This document shows, in pieces, positions 6,588 to 64,000 of a DNA stretch of 64,000 nucleotides. Under the pieces are notes generated by a model. It was not told where the DNA came from. It worked only from the letters and a program-made list of their open reading frames with translations, and searched no databases. A program made the position numbers and the translations under genes. The first letter of the stretch is position 1. Each line of letters begins with the position of its first letter. The stretch comes from Tetraselmis striata. Lineage: Eukaryota; Chlorophyta; Chlorodendrophyceae; Chlorodendrales; Chlorodendraceae. Location: NCBI GenBank assembly GCA_006384855.1, contig VCJN01001017.1:1-64000 (forward strand), read 5' to 3'.

Positions 6588-9500
6588 ATGGCCGGCGCAG
6601 AGGCTACGGCGGGCCGCCGCCCTACGGTGCCGGCCCGCCCGGCGGCTTCCGGGACGGGCCGCCGGGGCCACGCCGCATGTCCAACGAGTATGGGCAGCCG
6701 GGAGGGCCGCCCAGGTGAGCCCCCCCTTCACCCTTCACCCGTTTCTGGTGCAGCCGCGCGGGAGATCAGTCCACGCAGGGGGGGAGGGTAGGCAGGGAGA
6801 GGCGAGCGGATGGGTGTGGGGAAACTTGTGTGTGGGTGTGTGAGGGGGGGGTAATGGGGTCGGAAGCAGTATGCCATACTCTCAGATCACTTCACCAGAA
6901 TCCAGTCCAGAGTTTATCTTGAAGTCCATTTTGGACCGCGCGAATTCGGTATGAATGGGCCGAGAGGCGGGGGGGGGGGGGGGGGGGGGCAGATTAGAAA
7001 ATGGTATCTAGTCGGAGGCTGTCAGTCGCGCTGACCCCCCTGTTGCACGGCACCCCCCTGTCCGCAGGCACTTTGATGACCGCCACGGCCCCGGGCCCGG
7101 CGGCTTTGGCGGCCGCCCCGGGCCGGGTGGCTTCCAGGAGCACAGGGGCCCGCCGGGCGGCTACCACGCGGGGTCGCCCCCGCCTCACATGCCACGCAAC
7201 TCACCGCCCATGGGCGCGGGCCACCTGTCGGGGCCGCCGCCCTCGGAGCGCCCGCGCCTCAAGCTCGCGCCCCGGAGCAAGCCCCTGGACGCGGAGAGCG
7301 GGTGCCCCCCCCCCCCCCCTTTCCACACACACACTCTCTCTCTCTCTCTCTCTCTCTCGATTCCTCCATCCTATTACTTCCCTGATGGACTCGGATTGTG
7401 CGCCTGATTCCATTCAACTCGATGGGAATTCATTTTCCTGACCTCATGTCCATCGGAACTGGATACTCCGGAATTTCTGGAATGGTTGGGATTCCGGAAT
7501 TTGTTTTTCTGGGATATTTGGGGATTCCGGCGCTAAGTTTGCATGTCGCGAACAGACGGCTGCAAGGGCCCCTTTGCGAGCAGCCCCCCACCCCACCCAG
7601 CGGAACTTCACCAATGGCACACACCCAGTCCCCACGCTCGCGGTGTATTGTCGCTCCTGACCGATCTGGCGCCGGCATGAGTTGAAGCCACGCCTTTGTG
7701 ATTGTGCGTTTGTGTTTGCCGCCCCGCAGGCCCGCGCCCTCAGCCCACAGCTCTGGGAAGCCCAACCCCTTCGGGTCCGCCAAGCCGGTGGACACCGCCG
7801 CCAAGGTGCGGAGCGCGCCTCCCGCCCCGGGTGTGGCGGCTGTCCAGGCCTGCAGTGGGTTTGTTTTTGGTTTCATAGCCGGGAAACTTGAACACAGAGG
7901 ATTCGATAACGACGATGCGTGCGATTACACCCAAACCCTAAAACAAAACCTAATGTCCACCGTATACTCCCAACCCACAAATCCAAGCCAAACAGATCCA
8001 AGCCAAAACACAGAAGACAGGTTTAGGGTTTTAGGGTTAGGTTTTAGTATCTTTTTCTAAACCCTAAACTCTTACCCAGCCCCCACATTGCAACAAATTC
8101 CAAGCCAACAGATCCCAACAGATCGCACGACTTCGCCCTGCGGTTGCCCTCCTGTATGCCGTTGCCCGCGCCGCCGGAGTTCGAACCACGAACCTGCGGA
8201 ATAGCGGCCGATTGCCGGGGCCGCCGGGAACGTGCAGCCGCATCTGCCGCCACCGGACATTGTCACCGGGCTGTAGACATGCGCGCCCAATAGCGACCAG
8301 CGAATTGCGCTCGGGCCTTGAGAGACCCGGAGGCAAATGACTTGGCATCTGCTGGATGCGAGCGGTGTCTCCCCTGAGTTGGCCCAGCGCTGGGACCCGT
8401 GTTGCCATGACATTGACTGGATGGGATGGGATGGGATGGGATGGGATGGGATGGGATGGGATACGGATGGGATACGGATGGGATACAGATGGGGTGGGAT
8501 GGGATGGGATGGGATACGGATGGGGTGGGATGGGATGGGATACGGATGGGATTTGATGGGATGGGATGGGATGGGATGGGATGGGATGGGATACGGATGG
8601 GATGGGATGAGGTGGGATATGGATGGGATGGGATGGGATGGGATGGGATACGAATGGGATGGGATGGGATGGGATTTTTTGGGATGAGATACAGATGGGA
8701 TTTTTTGGGATGAGATTTGATGGGATGGGATGGGATATGGATGGGATGGGATGGGATGGGATACAGATGCGATGGGATGGGATGGGATGGGATGGGATGG
8801 GATGGAATGCGATGGGATGGGATACGAATGGGATGGGATGGGATTTTTTGGGATGAGATACAGATGAGATTTTTTGGGATGAGATTTGATGGGATGGGAT
8901 GGGATGGGATACAGATCGGGTGGGATGGGATGGGATGGGATGGGATGGGATACGGATGGGATGGGATGGGGGGTTGTCACAGGTCTGAATTCAGTAGCCC
9001 AAAATCAACCCCCCCCCCCAACACACACCCACACACCCCCACCTGTACTCTAGCTGCCACGTGCGTGTCCACCTCTCACCTCGTCCTACTGTGCCCTGCG
9101 CCCCGTGCCCCCGACCAGCTGGCGGAGCTGGACAAGAAGGAGCACGCGCGCGAGGTGGGCGCCGCTGGCCTGATCCCCACAGGCACATAAACGCGGAGAC
9201 GAGCGCGGACACATTCGCACCCACGCACACCCAGGATGCACACCTCACACGGCTGCGCCACACTGCTCCAACCCTCCCCAATGTTCCAGACGCCCCCGGT
9301 CTCACGCAGCGCGAACCTGTGCGGGTTGAGGATACTCTCGACTGGTGCTGTCCGCACACCGTGTTTGGTCCGAAGTAAGCGTGAAGAATGGTAGCAGTAC
9401 TTGTCATGTTCCGTCGAACGTCGCCATGCTTTCATGCACACCTACTGCTGGCGCCCACTCTCATGCTGCATAGATGGAACATCTGGGGGAGCATGCATGT

Positions 9501-12913: not shown

Positions 12914-14200
12914 CGATTGATGCGGCCGACGGCCCGCTTGAGCCAGTTGCCGAGGGTGACGGCGTTCCACATAAGGGGCGGGGTAGCCTTGTCACCGTGG
13001 AGCGCCCGGAATCAATCAGGTTGCTTGGCGGTGGGGGATGCTGCCCGGAACGCTGCGTCGCGGTAGGCGGCGAAGCGGCGGAGAAGGGCTGTCCACGCGG
13101 GCACGGTGGTGGCGGGGATTTGAAGTAGGGGCTTGAACCCGTCTCAACGCTTGCGATGTCCCCACTTCTTGCGCGGTTGACGAAGAGGGTGATGTTGTGG
13201 GTGTCCACGGCCATGTCGATGAGTCGGCAGGAGACGCTGGACTCACCATGGGAGTAAAACATAAATGTTGAACACACCGTGGCGCCCTCGTGGAGGATGG
13301 CCCCGAAGCTGGAGGTGGTCATGGGAAGGGTAGCAAGGTCGTTGAGGATGTCGGTGATGGCGTCGCATGGAAGGGGGCGCGCTGCAGCTCCTCGCTAGTC
13401 TTGAGCTGACGGATTTGAAGCGCGCGCTTCATGCCGTTGATGGCCGGGCCGGTGCCCGCAGCGTGATCCCGACGGGTATGACGCAGGAAGGTGTTGATAA
13501 CCGAGAGGTAGGGTTGCAGAGAGCCGGCGCAAATGGTGCCGCGCTCCGCAATCCAGGCGATGTACCGGACGCAGGTATACTCGGTGCACTCCATCAGGCG
13601 GGAGATGCCTTCTTCGTCGATGCAGAACTCGGCGAAGAGGCGAATCTTGCCTTCGTAATTGGAGTAGGTGCTGGCCGTGAGCGAAGTAGTTAGCAGGTCG
13701 AGCACCCTGGCGCCCCAGTCGTCCGTGCCGCAGAGGGCCTTGATGTTGGCTCGCATAAGCTCGCTCCAGGGGGCCTTCGCTTTGGCGTCGGCGATGGAGT
13801 AGGTAGGTGTCTTCTTAGCACGGTGGACGGGCCGGAACGCTCCGTGCGCCGCTGCCGGGTTCGCTGCGGCCGAGAATGACGCCCGCCGGGTGGTGACAAA
13901 AAGGCCGGGTGTAGCACCAAGTTGATGCCAACAGGAGGGCATGGCACTGTAGCCGCTGATCTCGTAGCCAGCGTCGCGGGCGAACATGGCTCGTCTGGTT
14001 GTCCACAAGCGGCCGCTGTGCGGCCGACGGACACCGAGGGTTTTCGGGGCAGGTCGGGTGGGCCGCGCCAGTAAGAGAGTCCGTGTAGACTCGCGATGTG
14101 GAAGAACATAGTATAGGGGCGGAAGGGTTGGCCCCGGCGAGGGTAGGGGGAAGATGATGGCTCGCGCAGGAAGGTCAGCGGTGAGGGAGTCCCGCTCATG
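12660..14200 (-). pseudogene. Broken tyrosine recombinase (element copy 2)
   Basis: The minus strand encodes, across several frames, a protein clearly related to the intact recombinase at 34504-36009. Shared stretches are SLQPYLSVINTFLRHTRR (compare SLQPYLSAINTFFELH), MAVDTHNITLFVNRARSGD (compare VDTYNITLQIYREKGRA), GANAAGAPLNKIRHWGD and NDYIDPTTLPTRAAALLFGW. The reading frame shifts at several places, and a 31-base poly-C (sense strand) sits at 12882-12912 just before the HxxR motif, replacing a short Pro-Pro codon run of the intact gene. The catalytic Tyr (NDYIDP) is still present, but the protein cannot be made as one chain. Confidence 0.8.
12882..12912. repeat. Homopolymer expansion inside the recombinase gene
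   Basis: A 31-base G run on the plus strand (poly-C in the gene's sense). The equivalent site in the intact copy is a seven-base C run at about 35746-35752; the third copy has a 26-base run at 60291-60316. Confidence 0.9.
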
Positions 14201-14220
14201 CCGACGACTCCAGTGTAGCG

Positions 14221-15228
14221 TTATTTGGAAGGCATGCCCTTAGGCGTGCCCTCGAAACGTAGCTGCATGGGGTCGGCACGGCAGAGCACTCCATCATTTG
14301 GCCGTGTCGACCGCCGTGGGGGCCTCAGCTTTCGCCTTGCCCTTACCGGAGTCCTTGGTGACGTCTTTTGCGAAGGTGGCTCGTATCGCCACCGCCTCGC
14401 ACCCCGGGCGCGTAGTTTTGAAGTTTCCGCGGCTGCCGCCGCCGCCGTCTCCATCGCAGTCGTTGCGCCGGAGGGCGCCGCCGAAGCGCCAACGAGCGGT
14501 GGTTTTCGCGGCGCTAGCGATGTGGCATCGTAGACGCGGTCCTTGTAGAGCTCCCGTAGCTCGGTGAACTCGGGCGACCCCAACATATGAGTAATGGGGC
14601 GGAGGTAGCGCTCCCGCACGACGCCGAGAGCAAAGGTGTCGCCGTGGTGCATCTGCGTATCCGAGTACTTGCGGAGGTAGGCCAGGCGGAACCGATGGCC
14701 GTCGTCGATGGCTATCATGATGTGGACGATGGCCTCGAGCCGCTGCCCGAAGGCCGGCGTGATCCGGTCGGTGACGCATGCCGCCGCCAGTAGCTTACGC
14801 ATCACAACAGCCGAGCCAGCAATGAAAGCCCGGTAGGACGGAGCGTGGTAGTACTCATCCGTTGCCGGTTGAAGACGAGGGTTACCAAACATGTACTGGA
14901 GCACGTGGTCGAGGGCGATGGGGAAGAGCTCCGGTCGTCACAGACTGTCGGGAGGCATTCCGTTCTCGAAACCGGTCAAAGCCGTAGCGAGGGCGGTTTT
15001 ACAATCAAGATAATGTGGTTCGCTCAAAGGGGCGAAGGGCGCACGGACGCTCCGGGCGGTCCCGACCACCGGCGATGGACTCGTTCCCGCCCGGAATGGC
15101 GTCCTTTTCATCGGCGGCATCCGGCGGCAGTAGAGGATGGGTTGGTGAAGAACCTGCAAAGCCGCTCTTGGATGAGTTGCTTCAATCTTTATGGTGTCTT
15201 CCGCCTCACGTCCCGACACACCCGACAA
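14221..15228 (-). pseudogene. ORF1 of the decayed recombinase element (copy 2)
   Basis: Upstream of the recombinase on the same strand. The 227-codon frame at 14904-14221 contains HRFRLAYLRKYSDTQMHHGD and PEFTELRELYKDRVYDA, matching FRFRLAFLRRLNEIKRVHGD and FGDLMRDYERRVFEA of the intact ORF1 at 33473-34348. The start region continues in another frame to about 15228. ORF1 ends within about 25 bp of where the recombinase begins, so there is no room for a reverse transcriptase between them. The C-terminus is rich in Arg/Lys, suggesting nucleic-acid binding. Function unknown; gag-like by position. Confidence 0.7.
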
Positions 15229-17790: not shown

Positions 17791-18553
17791 TCAGCAGTCG
17801 TGGGCTCGACTACCGCGCGACCACCTGCCTGTACATCGCTACCTGTACATCGCGTGGTAGGAGCTGGTTCGTTAATGATTCGGATGCTTTCCGGGTAGAC
17901 ATGGGCCCCACCCCCCACCGCGACACACGTTTCACACACGTCGTCTGATCGGGAACGGGAGCGCAATCGGTTCCTCCTTCGTAGTTACAGTATGTACGCG
18001 TTATGATACCGCACTGTAACTAAACAACAAAATCTGGATGAGGGAGAATATTCTCCTATGTAGGGCGGTTATTACGGACGGCATTACGTCATGCATTACG
18101 TCATGCATGAGTACGGATATCCGGGTACTCGTATCATCGCGTTTGCGGCGGGAATAAAGAACCTACCCGCGTCCTGGCTGCACGGGTTGAGACGGTTGCA
18201 TCCCCGAGACCGACAGACCGTTGCGTCTCCATCTCCTGTGGCCAAGCCTTAAGCTGCCTCCGGCTCCATGTCGTCCAGAACGCAACGTCCTATAACCCAG
18301 CCTTAAGCAGCCCCCTCCGGCCTCCGCTCCGCGCCCCCGTCTCCTTGAGGAGTCAACGCTGGCGGTGGGGAGACAGCGCCGGTGGAGACAACTGCGACAG
18401 CAGGCAAATTTTCACCCAGGCGCGTCGAGGCGCAGGCCTGGGAGGGTTCGGTGAGGCTCGTCATCGCGAGGTGCAGCGAAGCCTCGACGGCGAAACCCTT
18501 CATCGACTCTGAGCGACTTCTCTGCACTCCCGCGAGGGCTGCTTTACAACACA
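17791..18553. other. Upstream region of the Trx-hemerythrin gene
   Basis: Non-coding as far as I can see. It contains a perfect tandem duplication of a 12-bp unit at 18081-18104 with ACGTCA cores, and GC-rich sequence close to the gene. The last 170 bp are open in another frame but show no recognisable protein. Confidence 0.45.
18081..18104. promoter_or_regulatory. Tandem TTACGTCA (bZIP/CRE-like) sites
   Basis: Two perfect copies of GCATTACGTCAT directly adjoin each other, each with a TTACGTCA core of the kind bound by bZIP factors. They lie about 450 bp upstream of the candidate selenoprotein start. Binding is an inference. Confidence 0.4.
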
Positions 18554-19768
18554 ATGGCGCGCTCCGCTCCCATCGGGGACGGCCTGGTCCTGGTCCAACA
18601 CAACAAGCGCGACAGTCCGACATCGCACGCGGTGCACCTGCGGGACCTCTCGGCGGGGCGGCCCTGCGTGCTGCACCTCTACACCGGCTGAGGCGGCTGC
18701 TGGCCCTGCGCGCAGCAGATGGACCGCTGGGCAGCCTCCCTGCCTGGTGTCGCGTTCGTCTGCGTCAGCTGCGCGGGGCCAGCGCTCGCCGTTGCCTTCC
18801 GGGACCGCCTGGGGCTGAGGCACTGCCACAACGCCTACGTCGCCTCGGAGAAGCACATGCCGGAGTGGGGCCAGCTGGGCTGCAACGGCTTCATTGTGTT
18901 GGACGCTGACATGCGGGTGGTTTGTCCAGCCACAGAGGCGTTCCTGGACGTGGGCCCAGATCGTGCGTTCCCCCACGTCGAGTCCATCCTCGAGCGTCTG
19001 CTTCAGAGTGAGACCCACCAGGGGCGCGAGAAGGAGGAGGAGGAGGAGGAGCAGCAGCAGCAGCGCACTACTGGGGGCTGTTCTACGGGGCGCTGCGAGC
19101 TTCCCGTCAAAAGGAGCGCACCGCTATCAGATCCTGAGCGTGGGAGGGATATTGCAGCCAACAAGGCTTCATCGGCAGAGGACAGCGCTGACAGCGCCTC
19201 GGCCGATTGTGATAGCGATCACAGCCCTGGAGCGGGCTCTGACGTCGCCTCGGCCAACGCCCTGCTCGAGATCCATGCAACCGGCGTCAAGGCAATGGAT
19301 GCCGAACACGACGAGTGCGCCTCTGCCCTCCAAGCCCTTCAGGAGCACCGATCCCGTACTGCCTTACGCTTGGCTTTGGACTGCGTCAGCCGCCACTTTG
19401 CCCACGAGGAGCGGGTGCTGGACACCACCATCTGGGCGAACGCCGCAGCCCTGGATCAGCGAGATGGCGGCAGGCAGCTCCCAGGGGCAGAGCAGGCAGA
19501 TGTGTTGCCAGACATCCCTGCCAAAGCTCCGGCTCGTGGCTTCTCGGCGGAGAGCAGCGCCCGCCGCAGCCACTTTGCCGACCATGCCCGGATGCTGCGT
19601 GCGATGGCGGAGCAGCTCGAAGCGCTGGCAGCCGCAGGCAAGCTGGAGGAGGCTCCGGCGCTGGAGCCCGCGTTTGTGGACAAACTACTGAGCGACTTTG
19701 TGGCCCATGCGAACATGTACGATGCTGCCTACGCCGGCGGAGTCATTGACCCTGCCTGCGACATCTAG
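18554..19768 (+). CDS. Candidate selenoprotein: thioredoxin-like domain fused to hemerythrin domain
   Basis: A single-exon frame of 404 residues opens at an ATG in good context (ACAATGG) and is interrupted only by TGA at 18689-18691 (residue 46). The N-terminal domain (about residues 1-150) is thioredoxin-like, with strand VLHLYTG, then U-G-G-C-W-P-C, giving overlapping UxxC and CxxC redox motifs at the expected end of the first strand. An acidic/Gln linker (about 158-172) and a Ser/Asp-rich segment follow. The C-terminal domain (about 236-395) is hemerythrin: all seven canonical iron ligands are present, H252 (AEHDE), H281 and E285 (HFAHEE), H340 and H344 (HFADH), H385 and D390 (HANMYD). Reading the TGA as a stop would leave 45 residues and separate the intact redox motif. 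A SECIS element follows in the 3' UTR. Likely role: thiol redox chemistry coupled to di-iron sensing or binding of oxygen or peroxide. No organelle signal seen. Confidence 0.85.
18689..18691 (+). other. In-frame UGA, predicted selenocysteine codon
   Basis: TGA at codon 46, with high coding quality continuing in the same frame on both sides (LHLYTG before, GGCWPCAQQMDRW after). Selenocysteine three residues before a Cys gives the UxxC pair typical of redox selenoproteins. Confidence 0.8.
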
Positions 19769-19826
19769 CTGGCATTGCGCCCCCTGCTGCTGCACCTTCT
19801 GCTGCTGCTGCTCCTTAATTGCTCCA

Positions 19827-19911
19827 CAGCTGCTTTCCACATGATGGCAACCCTTGAAAACCGGGCATGAGTCCCTGGTAGGGGTTGCCTGAGTACAGTC
19901 CAAAGCAGCTG
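19827..19911 (+). promoter_or_regulatory. Type II SECIS element
   Basis: All eukaryotic SECIS elements can be traced. Helix I is CAGCTGCTTT (19827-19836) paired with AAAGCAGCTG (19902-19911), a perfect 10-bp inverse. After an internal loop comes the quartet ATGA (19841-19844) opposite TGA (19890-19892), giving the G-A/A-G non-Watson-Crick core. Helix II is GGCAACCC (19846-19853) with GGGTTGCC (19882-19889), eight perfect pairs. The unpaired AA lies in TTGAAAA (19854-19860), 12 nt after the quartet, the normal spacing. A mini-stem CCGGG (19861-19865) with CCTGG (19874-19878) makes it form 2. It begins 58 nt after the stop codon and precedes a TGTAA signal. Confidence 0.88.
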
Positions 19912-29411: not shown

Positions 29412-32400
29412 TCACTCCGCCCTGCCGCCTACCACCACAGGCGCAGCATCTGCCGACGCACTATGAGCCTCCAGCCAGCTCGCAAACTCCTCGCCAGCCG
29501 CTGCAACAAGGGCCGAGTCCTCCTGGTGGTCGCGGTACACCTCTGGGTTGGTGCGCTTGTTCTTCGAGTTGGCCAGGTACATCTCGCGCCGCCAGGCCGG
29601 CAGGTGCGGCACGTCCCCGCAGTAGTCGGCCATCCGGTTGATGTAGTCCCACTGCTTGTCCTTCATTTCGTGCACGTAGCGCCCCGGGACACCCGCCTCG
29701 TCCGCCGCGCGGTAGAACGCCTCCGTCTGCTCCACAATCTGGCAGGTTGCACGGATAGACACCATCAGAAGCGACACGACACGAGCAGCAACGCCATTTG
29801 CAAGACATCTGTAACCTCTGCCTCCCAGCAAGTCGCCATCCCGAGTGCCACCAAAGCAGTGCAGCCAGTCCTACCAACACCAAGACTGAAAGCAGTGATA
29901 GCCCATGCTAGGTGGCCGGTAGATACATGGACATAACCTGCAGCGGGTCGCAGGTGGCTTACGTCCTGTGGCAGCGGTGCCCGGCCGGACAGCGCCCTGG
30001 CCACCCACTTGGACTGCATGTGGAACAGGTGGAACGCCACTACGTTGAAGGGCAGCCCGATGAACGCGAGGCGCGGCGCCAGCTGGGGCACAAACACTTG
30101 CTGCCAGGGTGGGCGGGCAGCGGGGGTAGGCGGGGAGTCAGCACATCCCCGAGGTACGGGTATAACCCCTGCGAATGCACCACAGCGCATCTGCTGCATA
30201 CTGCTGAGCGCCGAGTATAAACTGAAAAAAACTTTATAAACAGCATATAAACTGGTGATCATACAGAGTGGAGCTGAGCATGTTGGCTTGTAGGTCATGC
30301 ATGCATGGCGGCCTTCTTCATGCGACGAGAATACGTCACCCCTCGCAAGGGAACAGTGGGTTGGCGTGAAGTTCAGCACCTCGTACAGGGGCTCCACGCG
30401 CCCCTTGTCAACGGATACCACGCCCGCGTCACGCAGGAAGGGGAAGTTGTACTTGTAGCCGGTGCAGTACAGTACCACGTCCACGCCGTCCGCAGTCATG
30501 CCGCCCTCAAACTCCACCGAGCCGTCTGCATCCAGCCGGCAGAGATTGTTGCGTCGGTACATGTTGCCTTTTGGGCCGAATGGCGTGGTGTCCTGTGCCC
30601 AGGCCGGGTTCTGCGAGGGAGCACAGGGCATCGAAAGCTGATATACACATCCATGCATTTGCACATACATGTATGCACACCCGCAAAAGATCCATCACTG
30701 GGTGTAACATACTGGTGCCGACGCACATATAATAACCCGAAATGTAATCCTTAATTGGAGTTGGCTTGCATGTAAGACGCGATTCGCATCCGCTCTTATT
30801 TTGTCTGTGTCTGACCTCTGATCGGTTTGGCAGGTTTGTGTTCACAGCATTCTTACAGTCTCACCGGCACCCATATTGACACATGTTAGATAATAGCAAG
30901 CACTACAAAGTAATGGCTCACTAATGACAATGAAGTATTTGTATCAGAGTCTAGTAAGATAGGATACCAGATACTGCAGTGCCATGATGATTTTGCCATT
31001 CAAAGTCGTGCGAACCTGCCACTTTTTGGCGCTCAGGTAGACGCGGTCCGCAACGGTGGCGACCTCCCGGCTGATGTCCTCCCCCGAGGACTGTGCACCC
31101 ACGACCACCACCACCTTCCCTGCGAAGCTGGCCGGGTTGCGGTAGTTGTGCGCGTGCATCTGCGTGCCTGGCCAGGAATCTGAGCCCGGCAGCGGCGGGT
31201 CTGGCAGGTTGGGCAGGCTGTAGTGCCCGTTTGCAACAACGAGCGCGTCAAAGTGCTCCGAGGAGGGTGTTGCGTCGTTGGCATCCTGCGCCACCCCTGT
31301 GCTGGCCGCTGATGGCGAGCAGGCATGTGTGGCGGAGTCAGGTTGCTTGTGATGGTGTGAGGCACTACCGTTATGGCATCGCTGAGGAGGGTGTAGGGTG
31401 GGGAGCGTGATGGCGTACGCTGATGCACGATCTCCCAGCCGGTGCAGGCAGGCGCGGAGGCGCCGTCTGCGCTGGGCTCCAGCAGCGGGAGAGCCTGGAG
31501 AACCTGGCGCTCGTAGCGGATGACCTCCTCCAGGCAGTGCCGGCGGGCGTACTCCTGCAAGTAGACCAGCACCTGCCCCCACACACACAGGGGCGCTAGA
31601 GCGGGTGAGGCGATTGTTGCTGGCTAGGGGTGGATGGTTGCTGTTGTGAAAGGTGTGTGTATGTGTGGGGGGGGGGGGGGGGGGGGCAGCCCCACCTCCT
31701 CATGGCCGCAGAAGCGGCGGGTGTCAATGGAGCGGCCGGCCATAGCCTCAGGGATGAAGGGCATGTCCAGGTAGGACATGACCTCGCGGGGGAGGTTTGT
31801 TCGCAGGCTCTCGTACATGGAGGAGTGCACCAAGCTGCGGCCAGCGTCCGCACCTAGCGGGTCCGACTCCGTGTTGGGGTCCAGCACCCAGACGCCGCCC
31901 AGGCTGTCAGACGCCTCAAAAACGGTCAAGCGGTGCCCCTCCGCCAGCAACTCCCGCGCCATCACCAGCCCCGACGCACCTGCACCAACCACCGCCTGCC
32001 GCAGCATGCCAGGGCCACTCAGGCGCCAGCCTATTTCCCGGACAGCGGGTTAAGCCACTAACGTGTGGGGTGCTCTAATATTGCCATACATACCATGAAG
32101 TAGTATTGGCATATTTCCATTACTTGCCATTATAGTTATGTGTCTGACCACACTATGCATTGGGCACAGGATCAAACATGGCGAATATTAATCGTCATGA
32201 TTTGTAAAAAGAAATGGAAGTCCATACAAGGGTGCAGCATATAAAGTACATATGTGAGGGCTTGCTTCTGGTTGTCCTCATTGTGGCGCCCTTGCCAAGC
32301 ACGTGCGCCCGCCGTACCACGTTCATGCTGCAACCGGCGTCCTGCGCCATAGCGGCGCACCGTAGGCCGCGCCTAGCCAGACCACCCGCCGGGGCCTGCG

Positions 32401-34348: not shown

Positions 34349-34503
34349 CGGTGTGGGGCGCCGTTCGTCGGAGCTGCAGGAGCCTTGCGAGGCCACCTTT
34401 CGGTGACCGCCGCAAGACGCACCCTTGCAGCTCAACGGCGGGATGAGCGCCCTGTGTCAGGACCTGACCCCCCACCTTACAGACTTCATTTAGACCTTCC
34501 TCG

Positions 34504-36009
34504 GTGCGGCGCTTCTTACAACTACAGCCGAGTGCGGCTCAACCATCCGCACACCTGCACATGGCGGCTCAACCATCCGCCTTTCTTACAACCCCATTTC
34601 TGCGATCGTCGGTTGTTACACTACGAGTTACAACCGGTTCGCAACGACCAAGTTTCGCGCGTGTACGTTACGCACGGGACAGGCGCTATGAGCGCGAAGG
34701 GCGCGCGGGGCGGCCCTCCTACCTGAACCTAGCCCCGCAAACCCGTACTGGAGCTACTGCAAACCCGTCCAGCAACTACCGGCCAACCGCCGGGAACCTA
34801 ACCGTTGCTGCCGAGTACTTTGCAAACAGTAGCCGTGCTGGTGGCACTCTGTCAGTAAAACGACGCACTTACGTAATCGACGAGCCCGCAGCTGTCGCTC
34901 CGTGGGCTGCGTCACTGCGATCCCGACTACAGGACGCGTTCGGCTCAGACGAGCTAGGCCAGCGGACGCTCGACCTGCTCTCCAGCTCCCTCAGCGCTCA
35001 GACCCTCAAGAGCTACGCCGGCAGGTTGGCTCAGTTCGCTGAGTTCTGCCACGACTCCGAGAACATCAGCCCGCTAGAGGCGACTACTGCTACTGTTGTT
35101 CGGTACGTTGCCTGGATCGGGGAGCGAGGGCATATCGCAGCTAAGTCGCTGCAGCCCTATCTGTCTGCCATCAACACCTTCTTCGAGCTGCACAACCTCG
35201 TCCCGATCGCCAAGGACAGCCTACACCTCACTTCGGCAAGACGTGGGTTAATGTTACGTCAGCGTCGACTGGACGCTGCCCCTTTGCGTGTCCCTCTGCC
35301 TGCGGATGTAGCTTACCGCTTCGTCTCAAAGGCCGAGCTAATTGTGTCTGCTCCTTACCCAGAGTCCCACCTCGACTACCGAGCCCTCTTGGCCTCGGTT
35401 GTCAACTTCCTGTTCTTTGCCAGGGGCCTTACTGGCGTCTCCTGTCGAGTGCAAGATGTGCATGTCGACACCTACAACATCACCTTGCAGATCTACCGCG
35501 AGAAGGGTCGCGCCGGCCGGCGGGGACCTCACGACCTGCGCGTACTTCTCCTTCCAGTGTCCGAGCACCCTCGAGTGGCACGTCTCTTGCGCTACTTCAT
35601 CGACAACGTCCAGTCTGTCCCCCTGGTTACTGTTGGCTTGGCTACCTCCAGCTTCTGGGCTGTCAATGTGGCTGAGCAGTCGAAACCTTGGACTGCGGCT
35701 ACGATGTCAGACAGGTTGTCTACAGCAGTCAACCTAGTCAACGCTGCCCCCCCTGCTGGCACTTCCTGGACTTCACACAGTCTACGCAAGGGCGCAGCCT
35801 CTGCAGCAAACGCCATTGGAGCGCCACTGTCCCACATCCGCTACCAGGGCGGTTGGGCCACTAACTCTGATGTCGTTCTGGACTACATCGACCCCAACGT
35901 TCTTCCTTCTCCTGGCGCGTGGTTCTTCTTTGGACACATCGCCCCCCTCCGCCACTTCCAAGTCCAACAGGACTCCGCAGCGGTGGCCTTCCCAGTGCCT
36001 CCTTCATGA
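34504..36009 (+). CDS. Tyrosine recombinase of the DIRS/Crypton type
   Basis: 501 residues from the first ATG; the true start may be later since residues 1-80 are low-complexity. An N-terminal SAM-like core-binding domain (about 130-260) includes SLQPYLSAINTFFELH. The catalytic domain (about 290-470) has the Arg in FLFFARGLT (R307), a hairpin Lys in YREKGRAGRRG (K335), HSLRKG giving H425 and R428, W451 in GGWATN, and the nucleophile Y461 in LDYIDP. All active-site positions of the family are intact. It follows ORF1 by 155 bp, in a different frame. Expected to integrate a circular intermediate without target duplication. Confidence 0.9.
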   Translation: MRRFLQLQPSAAQPSAHLHMAAQPSAFLTTPFLRSSVVTLRVTTGSQRPSFARVRYARDRRYEREGRAGRPSYLNLAPQTRTGATANPSSNYRPTAGNLTVAAEYFANSSRAGGTLSVKRRTYVIDEPAAVAPWAASLRSRLQDAFGSDELGQRTLDLLSSSLSAQTLKSYAGRLAQFAEFCHDSENISPLEATTATVVRYVAWIGERGHIAAKSLQPYLSAINTFFELHNLVPIAKDSLHLTSARRGLMLRQRRLDAAPLRVPLPADVAYRFVSKAELIVSAPYPESHLDYRALLASVVNFLFFARGLTGVSCRVQDVHVDTYNITLQIYREKGRAGRRGPHDLRVLLLPVSEHPRVARLLRYFIDNVQSVPLVTVGLATSSFWAVNVAEQSKPWTAATMSDRLSTAVNLVNAAPPAGTSWTSHSLRKGAASAANAIGAPLSHIRYQGGWATNSDVVLDYIDPNVLPSPGAWFFFGHIAPLRHFQVQQDSAAVAFPVPPS

Positions 36010-54572: not shown

Positions 54573-57558
54573 CTAAATGTCCCCAGATTTGTACACCATG
54601 TTGTAGGGCTTGTAGTCGCCGCTGTAGCGCTTGTACCCGTAGAAGCCCACAAAGGCAACCAGCGTAATGAGCGCCATGACGCTGGCAAGTGCCACCCAAC
54701 CAGTCAGCGTGATCATGGAAGATCCACTGGCCTGGGGGTTGATCAGCTGCGCCGACTGCGCCAGCTTCTGCATCTCAGCCAACTGACCAGCCAAGTAGGT
54801 GGTGCTGCCAGAGCCGTTCAGGAGCGCAATTGCGTCCTTGGGGGCAGCCACACTCACAAGGCGCTTGCAGTCGGGCTTGAGGGGCTTCTCCTCTGCAAGG
54901 CGGCGTGACAGGCAGCGTCCCACAGCGCCAATGGAGAAGATGCCACGGCTCTTGTTGCCCTTGGGACAGTAGGCCTGGACGTCCTCATCGCAAGCGGAGG
55001 TGAGGTGGGAGGAATCCTTGTAGGCCCACAGGGCCATGCGTACGCTGCGGCTCATCTCATTCTGGCAAGTCTCGCCGGTCTGTTCGAAGTTCTTGACCAG
55101 GCACAGCAGCACGGCAGCATTCTCGTGGGCGCGGCCTTTGGCGTCGGAGCAGATGGTGTCCACCTCATTCAGGCACTCGTGGCTGACACCGTAGTCCAGC
55201 TGCCAGTTCTCCTGCATGCGCGTCTGGCGCTTCTCAACCTCAGAACGGCAGCTCGTGGAGAAGTCGGGCTTGGCCATGTTCTCCTGCAGGCACTTGAAGA
55301 CGCGGCCCTTGCCAGGCTTGACGTTCTTGCAGAACACGCTGCGCTCCTCAGAACAGAGTTTGCTCAGCTTGGGCTGCAGGTCAGTGCTCTCACTCTCGAT
55401 CTTCTCAAGCTTCAGCTCCTCTGCAGCGCACGCCTCGCTGATCTTGGCACGGTTCTCGCGCAAGCATGCATGCACACGGCCTTCACCGGGCTCAACAGTG
55501 TCGCAGAACTCCTCCACGTCCATGCGGCAGGCCTCGGCCAGGATGATGTCGTTGCGGAAAGTCGTTGACCTCCATCTTCTCAAAGTAGGTGACCTCCTTC
55601 TTGCACTCATCACTGTTGATCTTCTCCTTCTTCTCAGTCAGGCAGCGCAGCACAGTGCCACCACAGGCATGGCCCAGGAAGGGAGAGCAGTCGTCGGCGC
55701 AGAGCTCATCAATGTCAAGCTCGCAGGCCATGTTGAGGCGGTAATTGAGGCGGTAGTCTTCGTTCTCGCGGTTCTCATCACGGCTGATCTCCTCCTTGCA
55801 CTCGGTGCTCATGTCGGGGTCATCAATCTTGTTCTGCAGGCAGCGAATGACGCGGGCATGGCCATGGGGAACGTCCTTGCAGAACAGCTTGGCCTCAGCA
55901 GAGCAAGCCATCTTCAGCGGGTACTTGAAGTCAATGTCCTCAGCAAAGCGAACCTCCTGGTCGAACAGGGTGGCGCGGCACTCATAGGTGAGCTCCTCAC
56001 GCTGGTCCTGCAGGCAGCGGATGACCCGCGCTGAACCAGGGGTTACACCCTCACAAAGACGGGTGCGGTCCTCGAAGCAGGCGTCAGCTAGAGGCTCATC
56101 GAAGCGGATGTCCTCAGCTGCACGCTCAGTCAGCTTCTTGACCTGCTTCTGGCAAGCAGGGACCTGGAGATCCTCCTTGTAGTCCTGCAGGCACTGGATC
56201 ACGCGCGCATCGTAGCCAGCAATGCTGTCCAGGCTGTCCTTCTCATAACCGCAGATCTCGTCAATGTCCTGACGGCACAGCTCACGCAGGTGCACATCCA
56301 GACGGAAGTCCTCTGCACGGCGCTCCATCATCTCCTCGAAGTGGGTCTTGCAATCAGCGCTAAACTCCGGATCGTTGCGATTCTCCTCCAGGCAGTCCTT
56401 GACCTGAGCGTTGCCGTACTTCTTGTTGTTGCAGAACTTCTTCTTGTCGTTCAGGCACGCATTGTACAAGACAACATTAAGGCGCAGGTCATCCGCGTTC
56501 TCAACCTCCTGGCGGAAAAGCTCCTCCTGACAATCCCAAGAGAGACGGGCACGCTGCTCGCGCTGCATAACATGCGCGGAAAATGTATAAGCGCAGCGCC
56601 AATCAGCAGAGATTCCGTAGATGGGCACAACTTGGTGGTGAAAACAAGTTCATGTGAATGTCCGTACCAAGCACTCCTGGATGCGGCCACCGCCAGGCTT
56701 TACATCGGCGCACAAAACGTCGGCATCAGCGCTGCACATGTCAGAGAGCATGACATCCATGGCCATGTCGTCGGCGGCTTCAACCTGGGTCTTCTGGATC
56801 TCATCCTTGCACTTCTCAGTCAGGCGGTCCTTGACCTCACGAAGGCAGGTGATGACAGCGCCCTCCTCGGGGTACAGGTTGCTGTCGTCACAGAACTTCT
56901 CCACATCCTTCTTGCAGGCAGTGGCTGTGCAGCAAGATAGAACTGTCAGCTAGTGTGATAAATTCAGGAATGTGTGCAGTATCCCCCCTTCCTCTGGAAA
57001 TCAAAGCTGTCTCAGGAGGATGCTCACCCAGGGCAATGTTCTTGTTGATGTTGGAAGCACGGTCTGCCTTGAAATCACGCAGCTCAAGCTTGCAGTCCTC
57101 GGAGACCTTGCGCCCATCCACATTGCCCTCCTCCTCGTTCTCAATCTGCTTTGTCAGGCAGTCAGACAGACGGCCTTCCCCAGGCATGACGTCCACACAG
57201 AAGTGGTCGATGTCCGAACCACAGTTCCCTGTGAAAGGAAGGCAATGATGATGAAAACGAGCAAGTTCATTTAGACGATGACAAGACTTGACCAAGAAAG
57301 TTAGACCTGGTTACGGCACGGAGAGGCGCAAATGTGCTTACCGGTAGTGGCTACGTCCGCGTCGCCGTTCGCCAACTCGGCGGGCGGCGCCTCAGGAATG
57401 ATGTCCGACACGACCGGAGAGTACGCTTCCTCCCGGAACTCCTGCGCCTCCTCGGCCTCCTGCAGCTTCTCCTGAAGCTCCTTCCCTGAGTCTGCCACCG
57501 CGCCGCCAGCCAGCAGAAGCAGGCACAAGGCGGCGACGGCCCAAGTGGTCCGCGCCAT
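54573..57558 (-). CDS. GLG1: Golgi apparatus cysteine-rich protein 1 (GLG1/ESL-1 family)
   Basis: Type I membrane glycoprotein of the Golgi; animal homologues bind growth factors and selectins in the secretory pathway. Exons: 57558-57342, 57228-57028, 56924-56668 and a very long 56562-54573; about 887 aa. It has a signal peptide (TTWAVAALCLLLLAGGAVAD), then tandem GLG1 repeats of about 55-65 residues, each with the pattern C...D(V/I)..(F/L)C..V.PG.GR(V/I)..CL (examples: VDVMPGEGRLSDCL, CKDVPHGHARVIRCL, CKNVKPGKGRVFKCL). Near the C-terminus lies a transmembrane helix (TLTGWVALASVMALITLVAF) and a tyrosine-rich tail ending YKSGDI. One extra T in a TTT run at 55558-55560 breaks the frame between two perfectly good halves; this is probably a sequencing error. 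Confidence 0.9.
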
Positions 57559-62985: not shown

Positions 62986-64000
62986 CAAATCTACCGGGCG
63001 GGGGCGGCTAGCCGATGCGCGCAGTCGCGTGCAAATAGCACTGAGCAGTTCATTTAGGCGCGGGCAAGACTATGCGCCATTTTTTTGCTACTCGTCGTAT
63101 GCCCGCGGGTGTAGCACGCGGTTTTGGTACGGTGGTTGCGAGGGCCGAGACGAGCAAGCTTGGGGGCGCCCTCCAGTGACGCAATCGCGCGCACTCAAGC
63201 ACTTCTTGAGACCGCGGAGTAATACCCGCATATCTACCGGGCGAGTCGGCTTGACGATGCGCAGTCGGGCGCAAATAATGCTAGAAATATTGTTCATGTG
63301 TTGACGATATTGTGCGACAGATTGTCGCTACTCGTCGTAAGGCGCGCGGCGGGAGTAGCTTGCAGCGGTCGTACGGCGTCATCGACGCTGCAGCGGCGAG
63401 CAATAAGCATGCGCGAGATCTCCCGCGGCGCAATCGCGCGCACTCAAGCACTTTGCTACCACGGAGTAATACCCGCATAACTATCGGGCGGGGCGGTTAG
63501 CCGATGCGCAGTCGGGCGCAAGTAGCTCCGAACAAATTACTTGTGTGCGGACGAGATTGTGCCCGTGATTTTAGCTACTCGAAAGGCGGTGGGCGTAGTA
63601 TGCAGCGGTCGTACGCCGGCAGCGACGCTGCGGCGGCGGGCAAGCCTGCGCGAGATCTCCCGCGGCGCAATCGCGCGCACTCAAGCACTTGCTATCACAA
63701 AGTAACACCCGCATATCTATCGGGCGGGGCGGCTAGCCGATGCGCAGTCGGGCGCAAGTAGCGCTGAACATATTGCTCGCGTGCGGACGACATTGTGCGC
63801 GATATTATTGGCGCTACTCGTTTGGCGGTGGGTCTAGTATGCAGCGGTACTATACGGCGTCATCGACGTCGCTGCGGCGGCGGGCACGCATGTGCGGCCG
63901 CCTACCCGTGGCGCAATCGCGCGCACTCAAGCGCTTGTTGAACCCGCGGGGTAATACTCGCATATCTACCAAGCGGGGAGCTAGCCGATGAGCAGTCGTG
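62986..64000. repeat. ~244-bp tandem satellite, continuing past the window edge
   Basis: At least four units. The landmark GCATATCTACCGGGCG (or close variants) starts at about 62986, 63228, 63475, 63711 and 63960, giving periods of 242, 247, 236 and 249 bp. Each unit also carries GCAATCGCGCGCACTCAAGC and GATGCGCAGTCGGGCGCAA. Unit divergence is moderate (roughly 75-85 percent by eye). No coding function. Confidence 0.92.

What the first reader, a model, noticed from the sequence alone, without database searches (positions are those of the whole stretch)
18554..19911. A selenoprotein of a kind I do not know: thioredoxin-like domain, in-frame UGA and SECIS
Seen directly: one long frame interrupted by a single TGA placed exactly three residues before a Cys in a redox motif, and a 3' UTR hairpin that satisfies every part of the eukaryotic type II SECIS model (10-bp helix I, ATGA/TGA quartet, 8-bp helix II, AA at 12 nt, mini-stem). 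The joint chance of both is very small. Green algae are known to be selenoprotein-rich, but I do not recall this protein among named families.
Basis: partly seen in the sequence, partly recalled or inferred. Interest (0 to 1): 0.95.

Follow-up and report, generated by a model that had tools for sequence, protein, structure and literature searches.

The report
Selenium thioredoxin fused to hemerythrin
This gene, probably from an alga, encodes a selenium-containing thioredoxin-like protein joined to an iron-binding hemerythrin domain; a 2020 survey appears to mention the family in one sentence, but the database copies examined here are almost all cut in two at the selenium codon.

Summary
At 18554-19768 (+) one 404-codon frame carries a single TGA (codon 46, 18689-18691). 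A SECIS hairpin begins 64 bases after the TAG stop (19832-19906; Rfam SECIS_1, 32.7 bits, under the gathering score of 35).

The protein is a thioredoxin-fold domain, a Cys-containing linker and a hemerythrin domain with all seven diiron ligands. The Sec aligns with the nucleophilic Cys of thioredoxin CGPC, giving U-G-G-C-W-P-C.

The stop is conserved. Of 129 relatives other than the window's own copy, 118 are models that begin at the first Met after the TGA. Of 101 short upstream relatives, 93 end at the residue before the Sec position. Five show Trp there, as expected if TGA was read by genetic code 4. No Cys form was seen among those listed.

The family seems already in print: Jiang et al. 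2020 record a hemerythrin domain in the algal 'TlpA' selenoprotein. It fits by description; sequences could not be compared. Function is inferred: a selenol redox centre working with a diiron O2/peroxide site. I file it as a new member of a known kind.

The parts
18554..19768 (+). Coding sequence, single exon, 404 residues with Sec at 46, TAG stop
   Evidence: homology on both sides of the TGA
18689..18691 (+). TGA codon 46, read as selenocysteine
   Evidence: stop at the same place in relatives
18689..18709 (+). Redox motif U46-G-G-C49-W-P-C52; U-G-G-C aligns without gaps with thioredoxin C-G-P-C
   Evidence: alignments (profile of five sequences, four of which show W at this place)
18554..19018 (+). 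Thioredoxin-fold domain, about residues 1-155 (DsbE/TlpA-, peroxiredoxin- and deiodinase-like fold)
18869..18889 (+). G106-Q-L-G-C110-N-G112 loop; all but residue 111 identical in 77 of 77 sequences of alignment A2; C110 in 130 of 130 relatives
19079..19096 (+). Linker motif C176-S-T-G-R-C181, similar motifs in several relatives
19244..19747 (+). Hemerythrin domain, about residues 231-398; ligands H252, H281, E285, H340, H344, H385, D390
19827..19911 (+). SECIS element, type II shape, in the 3' UTR (Rfam match 19832-19906)

Best explanation
The gene encodes a selenoprotein. Ribosomes read UGA at codon 46 as selenocysteine, directed by the 3' UTR SECIS. This gives a two-domain redox protein: a thioredoxin-fold domain whose nucleophilic Cys is replaced by Sec (U46-G-G-C49), joined by a Cys-containing linker to a hemerythrin diiron domain. 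Shown by computation: the open frame, homology on both sides of the TGA, the SECIS, a stop at the same place in relatives, the predicted folds of both domains, and the diiron ligand set. Inferred: that the residue is Sec; that Sec46 and Cys49 form a selenenylsulfide recharged by the cell's thioredoxin or glutathione system; and that the selenol removes peroxide, or supplies electrons to work done at the diiron site, which binds O2, peroxide or NO or senses iron and oxygen. Probability of Sec insertion about 0.95; of selenol-diiron cooperation about 0.45; of peroxide or O2 rather than NO or iron sensing about 0.3. The confidence given below is for the identity (Sec thioredoxin-hemerythrin protein), not for the activity.
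For: SECIS_1 match over the full model and the only SECIS-like site my scanner found in the window. Residues 6-45, before the TGA, are homologous to the start of full-length relatives, in one BLASTP alignment that runs on past position 46 (A3), so the TGA lies inside one conserved protein. Of 129 relatives besides the window's own copy, 118 begin at the Met aligned with M56, 2 begin one or two residues before it, 4 begin further downstream, 4 read through with W, and 1 has a different N terminus up to a few residues before M56. Of 101 short upstream proteins besides the window's own, 93 end at the residue before the Sec position. Five pairs of such halves share the same longest-contig length (1679170, 993534, 5485, 2110, 1654, in which I compared 84 of 102 upstream and 42 of 130 downstream rows). 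P0158 stops where P0132, identical over the 49 residues before it, reads W: code 4 reads TGA as W. U-G-G-C aligns gaplessly with thioredoxin C-G-P-C. The five ligands H252, H281, E285, H340 and H344 are present in 127 of 130 relatives; the other three proteins (P0074, P0075, P0076) lack most or all of the domain, P0074 and P0076 because the sequence ends. H385 is present in 92 and D390 in 93 of 130, most of the rest being gaps. An integrase-like ORF in the same window ends in TGA, weak support for TGA as a normal stop here.
Confidence: 0.88

Rival explanations
1. The TGA is a nonsense mutation or a real stop, and the functional protein starts at M56 (a hemerythrin with a truncated thioredoxin fold) as databases annotate it.
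For: 118 of 129 database relatives are annotated to start there.
Against: The residues before the TGA are conserved and end at the same place in 93 of 101 upstream relatives; a start at M56 would remove the first strands and the active site of the fold; a SECIS lies 3'.
Confidence: 0.03
2. UGA is decoded as Trp (variant nuclear code) or by plain readthrough, without selenium.
For: Five relatives show W at this place.
Against: Trp would sit where thioredoxin has its nucleophilic Cys; one W protein is identical over the 49 residues before the site to a relative that stops there; an integrase-like ORF in the window ends in TGA; the SECIS would be unexplained.
Confidence: 0.03
3. A Sec protein, but the hemerythrin half is a structural or iron-sensing module that does not exchange electrons with the selenol.
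For: The long low-confidence linker (pLDDT under 50 at 185-224) allows independent domains.
Against: The fusion is present in 127 of 130 relatives of differing linker, although the search queries themselves contained the hemerythrin domain and so favour such proteins.
Confidence: 0.4

Closest known systems
Algal TlpA selenoprotein (Jiang et al. 2020, BMC Genomics, PMC7539508)
   Same: Sec-containing, thioredoxin-like, carries a hemerythrin domain, found in algae; about 80% of members Sec-containing according to the paper.
   Different: Identity is by description only. The passages of the main text that I saw give no sequence or motif for TlpA, and supplements could not be opened. In those passages oxygen binding is suggested without an experiment.
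'Thioredoxin-fold / thioredoxin-like' selenoprotein of Ostreococcus and Thalassiosira (Lobanov et al. 2007, PMC2375036)
   Same: Thioredoxin-fold selenoprotein in marine unicellular algae.
   Different: The main text holds neither 'hemerythrin' nor 'TlpA', so it may be another protein.
TlpA/DsbE/ResA thiol-disulfide oxidoreductases
   Different: Sec instead of the first Cys, a further Cys52, an invariant G-Q-L-G-C-x-G loop without Pro at residue 111, and the hemerythrin fusion.
Iodothyronine deiodinase
   Different: 14% identity in the structural alignment; it did not appear in the sequence searches of the PDB; peroxiredoxins and TlpA-like proteins score alike.
Hemerythrin / myohemerythrin
   Same: Four-helix fold and all seven ligand positions.
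   Different: Fused to a Sec thioredoxin domain; a long insert, about residues 297-331, between the second and third ligand helices.

Membership tests
Eukaryotic selenoprotein | In-frame UGA inside a conserved coding frame | tested here: met
Eukaryotic selenoprotein | SECIS element in the 3' UTR | tested here: met
   (score 32.7, under Rfam's gathering score of 35, but every core feature present)
Eukaryotic selenoprotein | UGA conserved in orthologues | tested here: inconclusive
   Stop at this codon in most relatives; that it is TGA follows only from five W readings; no relative DNA seen
Eukaryotic selenoprotein | Sec machinery (tRNA-Sec, eEFSec, SBP2, SecS, SPS) in the same genome | not tested
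   The genome search unanswered
Eukaryotic selenoprotein | Selenium present in the protein | not testable with these tools
   needs 75Se or mass spectrometry
Algal TlpA selenoprotein (Jiang 2020) | Sec + thioredoxin-like domain + hemerythrin domain, as the paper describes it | tested here: met
Algal TlpA selenoprotein (Jiang 2020) | Sequence similarity to the published members | not testable with these tools
Thioredoxin fold, CxxC oxidoreductase | Fold and redox pair at the start of the first active-site helix | tested here: met
   helix 47-62 follows U46; UGGC aligned with CGPC; fold match
Thioredoxin fold, CxxC oxidoreductase | cis-Pro loop | tested here: inconclusive
   No Pro at residue 111 (S, N, K, R or G) in 130 relatives; that this is the cis-Pro place is my inference; coordinates not inspected
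Hemerythrin | Seven diiron ligands (His5, Glu, Asp) | tested here: met
   fold; the ligand pattern itself is recalled
Hemerythrin | Pfam PF01814 at its gathering score | tested here: inconclusive
   window protein 20.7 against 25.3; 70 of the 77 members of A2 match at E 0.01 or better

The most novel reading that the evidence does not exclude
A selenol-driven diiron enzyme: the Sec thioredoxin domain feeds electrons to, or clears peroxide from, a hemerythrin diiron centre in the same chain, forming an O2-, peroxide- or NO-handling enzyme that combines selenium and iron chemistry in haptophytes and diatoms. None of the passages and listings seen here describes such an enzyme activity.
Probability: 0.3. 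Interest if true: 0.75.

Novelty: new member of a known kind. Interest (0 to 1): 0.45.

Why it matters
The database models examined here are almost all cut into two unrelated-looking pieces at this codon (a short peptide and a 'hemerythrin-like' protein). Surveys of algal hemerythrins or thioredoxins that rely on such models would miss the Sec active site. Placing the Sec at the nucleophilic position of thioredoxin CGPC, with an invariant extra Cys loop and a complete diiron site, makes a coupling of selenium and iron chemistry in marine algae testable with one recombinant protein.

Tried and rejected
Rfam at gathering thresholds: nothing in the window; the SECIS appears only with the E-value setting. 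phmmer of the protein against PDB sequences gave only chance or repeat matches; the five-sequence profile did find thioredoxins and myohemerythrin. Scans of viral contigs and genome contigs with profile A1 found no relative, so no DNA of relatives was available for a SECIS covariation test. Reading the five W proteins as true Trp orthologues was considered and rejected because one of them equals, over the 49 residues before the site, a protein that stops there; for the other four this rests on analogy. The Phaeodactylum low-iron hemerythrin gene (PMC5156380, one passage) carries a CHY zinc finger, so it is another protein. The 12 passages on Aureococcus selenoproteins that I saw (PMC5917014; 'hemerythrin' was not a search term there) name thioredoxin-domain proteins but no hemerythrin. 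PMC6627142 holds no 'hemerythrin' (passages). Literature was searched (listings). Organism: not established. A tree of 77 sequences puts the window with P0003-P0005 (support 0.985); that group is sister to the branch with the named haptophytes (0.864) and far from Nitzschia.

Alignment A2 holds P0001 and 76 of the 130 relatives, chosen by me; P0074, P0075 and P0076, which lack most or all of the hemerythrin domain, were not among them, so the 77-of-77 figures apply to A2 alone and one search gives the figures for all 130. One search found 260 proteins but listed 120; the other 140 were not seen.

Full report
What is in the sequence. A 404-codon frame runs from ATG 18554 to TAG 19768 and contains a single TGA at codon 46. 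The nearest upstream in-frame stop is at 18452 and the start context is ACACAATGG. The 3' UTR hairpin folds with z -4.19. It matches Rfam SECIS_1 over the whole model with 32.7 bits, E 8.4e-5 in a 401-base stretch and 0.013 in the whole window, though below the gathering score of 35. My own SECIS scanner, whose criteria I set after seeing the hairpin, finds only this site on both strands, with 0.13 on average in 100 random sequences from a first-order Markov model of the window.

Is the TGA inside one protein? The residues before it are homologous to the start of relatives: BLASTP alignments to P0111 and P0115 begin at residue 6 and run on past position 46, with small gaps. Motifs such as P-[IV]-G-D and V-x-x-[FL]-Y lie before the TGA, and G-G-C-x-P-C-A after it.

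Conserved stop in relatives. Two protein searches (the second listed 120 of 260 hits) gave 130 distinct proteins including the window's own truncated model P0002. In one search, 119 of 130 (118 of 129 without P0002) start at the Met aligned with M56, the first Met after the TGA. Two start one or two residues before it, four further downstream, one has a different N terminus up to a few residues before M56, and four (P0110, P0111, P0114, P0115) read through and show Trp at the Sec position. A third search with only the N-terminal region (E up to 10) gave 102 short proteins, one of them the window's own 45 residues. In one search, 93 of the other 101 end at the residue before the Sec position (64 of them in HFYDGG); this count includes a few weak matches such as P0233 (E 5.8). 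The remaining eight are one W reader (P0132), four that run into other sequence near that place, and three others. The length limit of the search favours short pieces, but it does not fix where they end. Five N- and C-terminal halves have the same longest-contig length (84 of 102 against 42 of 130 rows compared). P0158 stops where P0132, identical over the 49 residues before it, reads Trp: this is what code 4 makes of TGA. No form with Cys at this place was seen among the proteins listed; this is not a full survey.

How it probably works. Sec insertion is supported by direct sequence evidence. The rest is inference from the domains: a selenol at the thioredoxin nucleophile, resolved by Cys49 and perhaps shuttled through Cys52, Cys110 or the linker cysteines, acting together with an O2- or peroxide-binding diiron site. 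Whether the diiron site is a sensor, a carrier or a catalytic partner cannot be told from sequence.

What is known. Jiang et al. 2020 (PMC7539508; outline, passages and section 5 seen) survey 137 algae, report 42 selenoprotein families, name TlpA among them with 80% of its members in Sec form, and state in one sentence that a hemerythrin domain is found in it. This fits the present protein; sequences could not be compared. Lobanov et al. 2007 (PMC2375036; passages) list a thioredoxin-like selenoprotein in Thalassiosira and a thioredoxin-fold one in Ostreococcus, and do not use the word hemerythrin. In the listings I saw no title or abstract start reporting an experiment on the fused protein. 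I therefore call it a new member of a known kind. What is added here is the position of the Sec in the fold, the full ligand set, and the finding that nearly all of the database models examined are split at this codon.

Limits. No DNA of relatives was available, the own genome could not be searched (tool unanswered), and the organism is not identified. Named relatives are Calcidiscus, Haptolina, Prymnesium and Diacronema (haptophytes) and Nitzschia (diatom). In a quick tree the window groups with three unnamed proteins (0.985), next to the branch with the haptophytes (0.864).

Noticed in passing
54573-56649 (-): Two long ORFs overlapping at their ends with 3 and 5 Cys-rich repeats (Pfam PF00839, E 1.8e-32 and 8.8e-56): a Golgi apparatus protein 1-like gene (that name is recalled).
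   Followed up: partly
34468-36009 (+) and 13319-14239 (-): Tyrosine-recombinase-like ORFs (Phage_int_SAM_1, below cut-off in the second; the first also Phage_integrase below cut-off), probably parts of mobile elements.
   Followed up: partly
29765-31699 (-): Two ORFs matching parts of a flavin-binding monooxygenase-like gene (FMO-like), separated by stops, probably introns.
   Followed up: no
8419-8970: A 5-base tandem array (GGATG, about 107 copies) that makes long ORFs on the minus strand.
   Followed up: no
63180-63998: A 236-base tandem repeat of 3.4 copies at the window end.
   Followed up: no
relatives P0178, P0185, P0192, P0203: Four upstream relatives run on into unrelated residues right at or near the Sec codon, which may mean an intron at that place in some species.
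   Followed up: no
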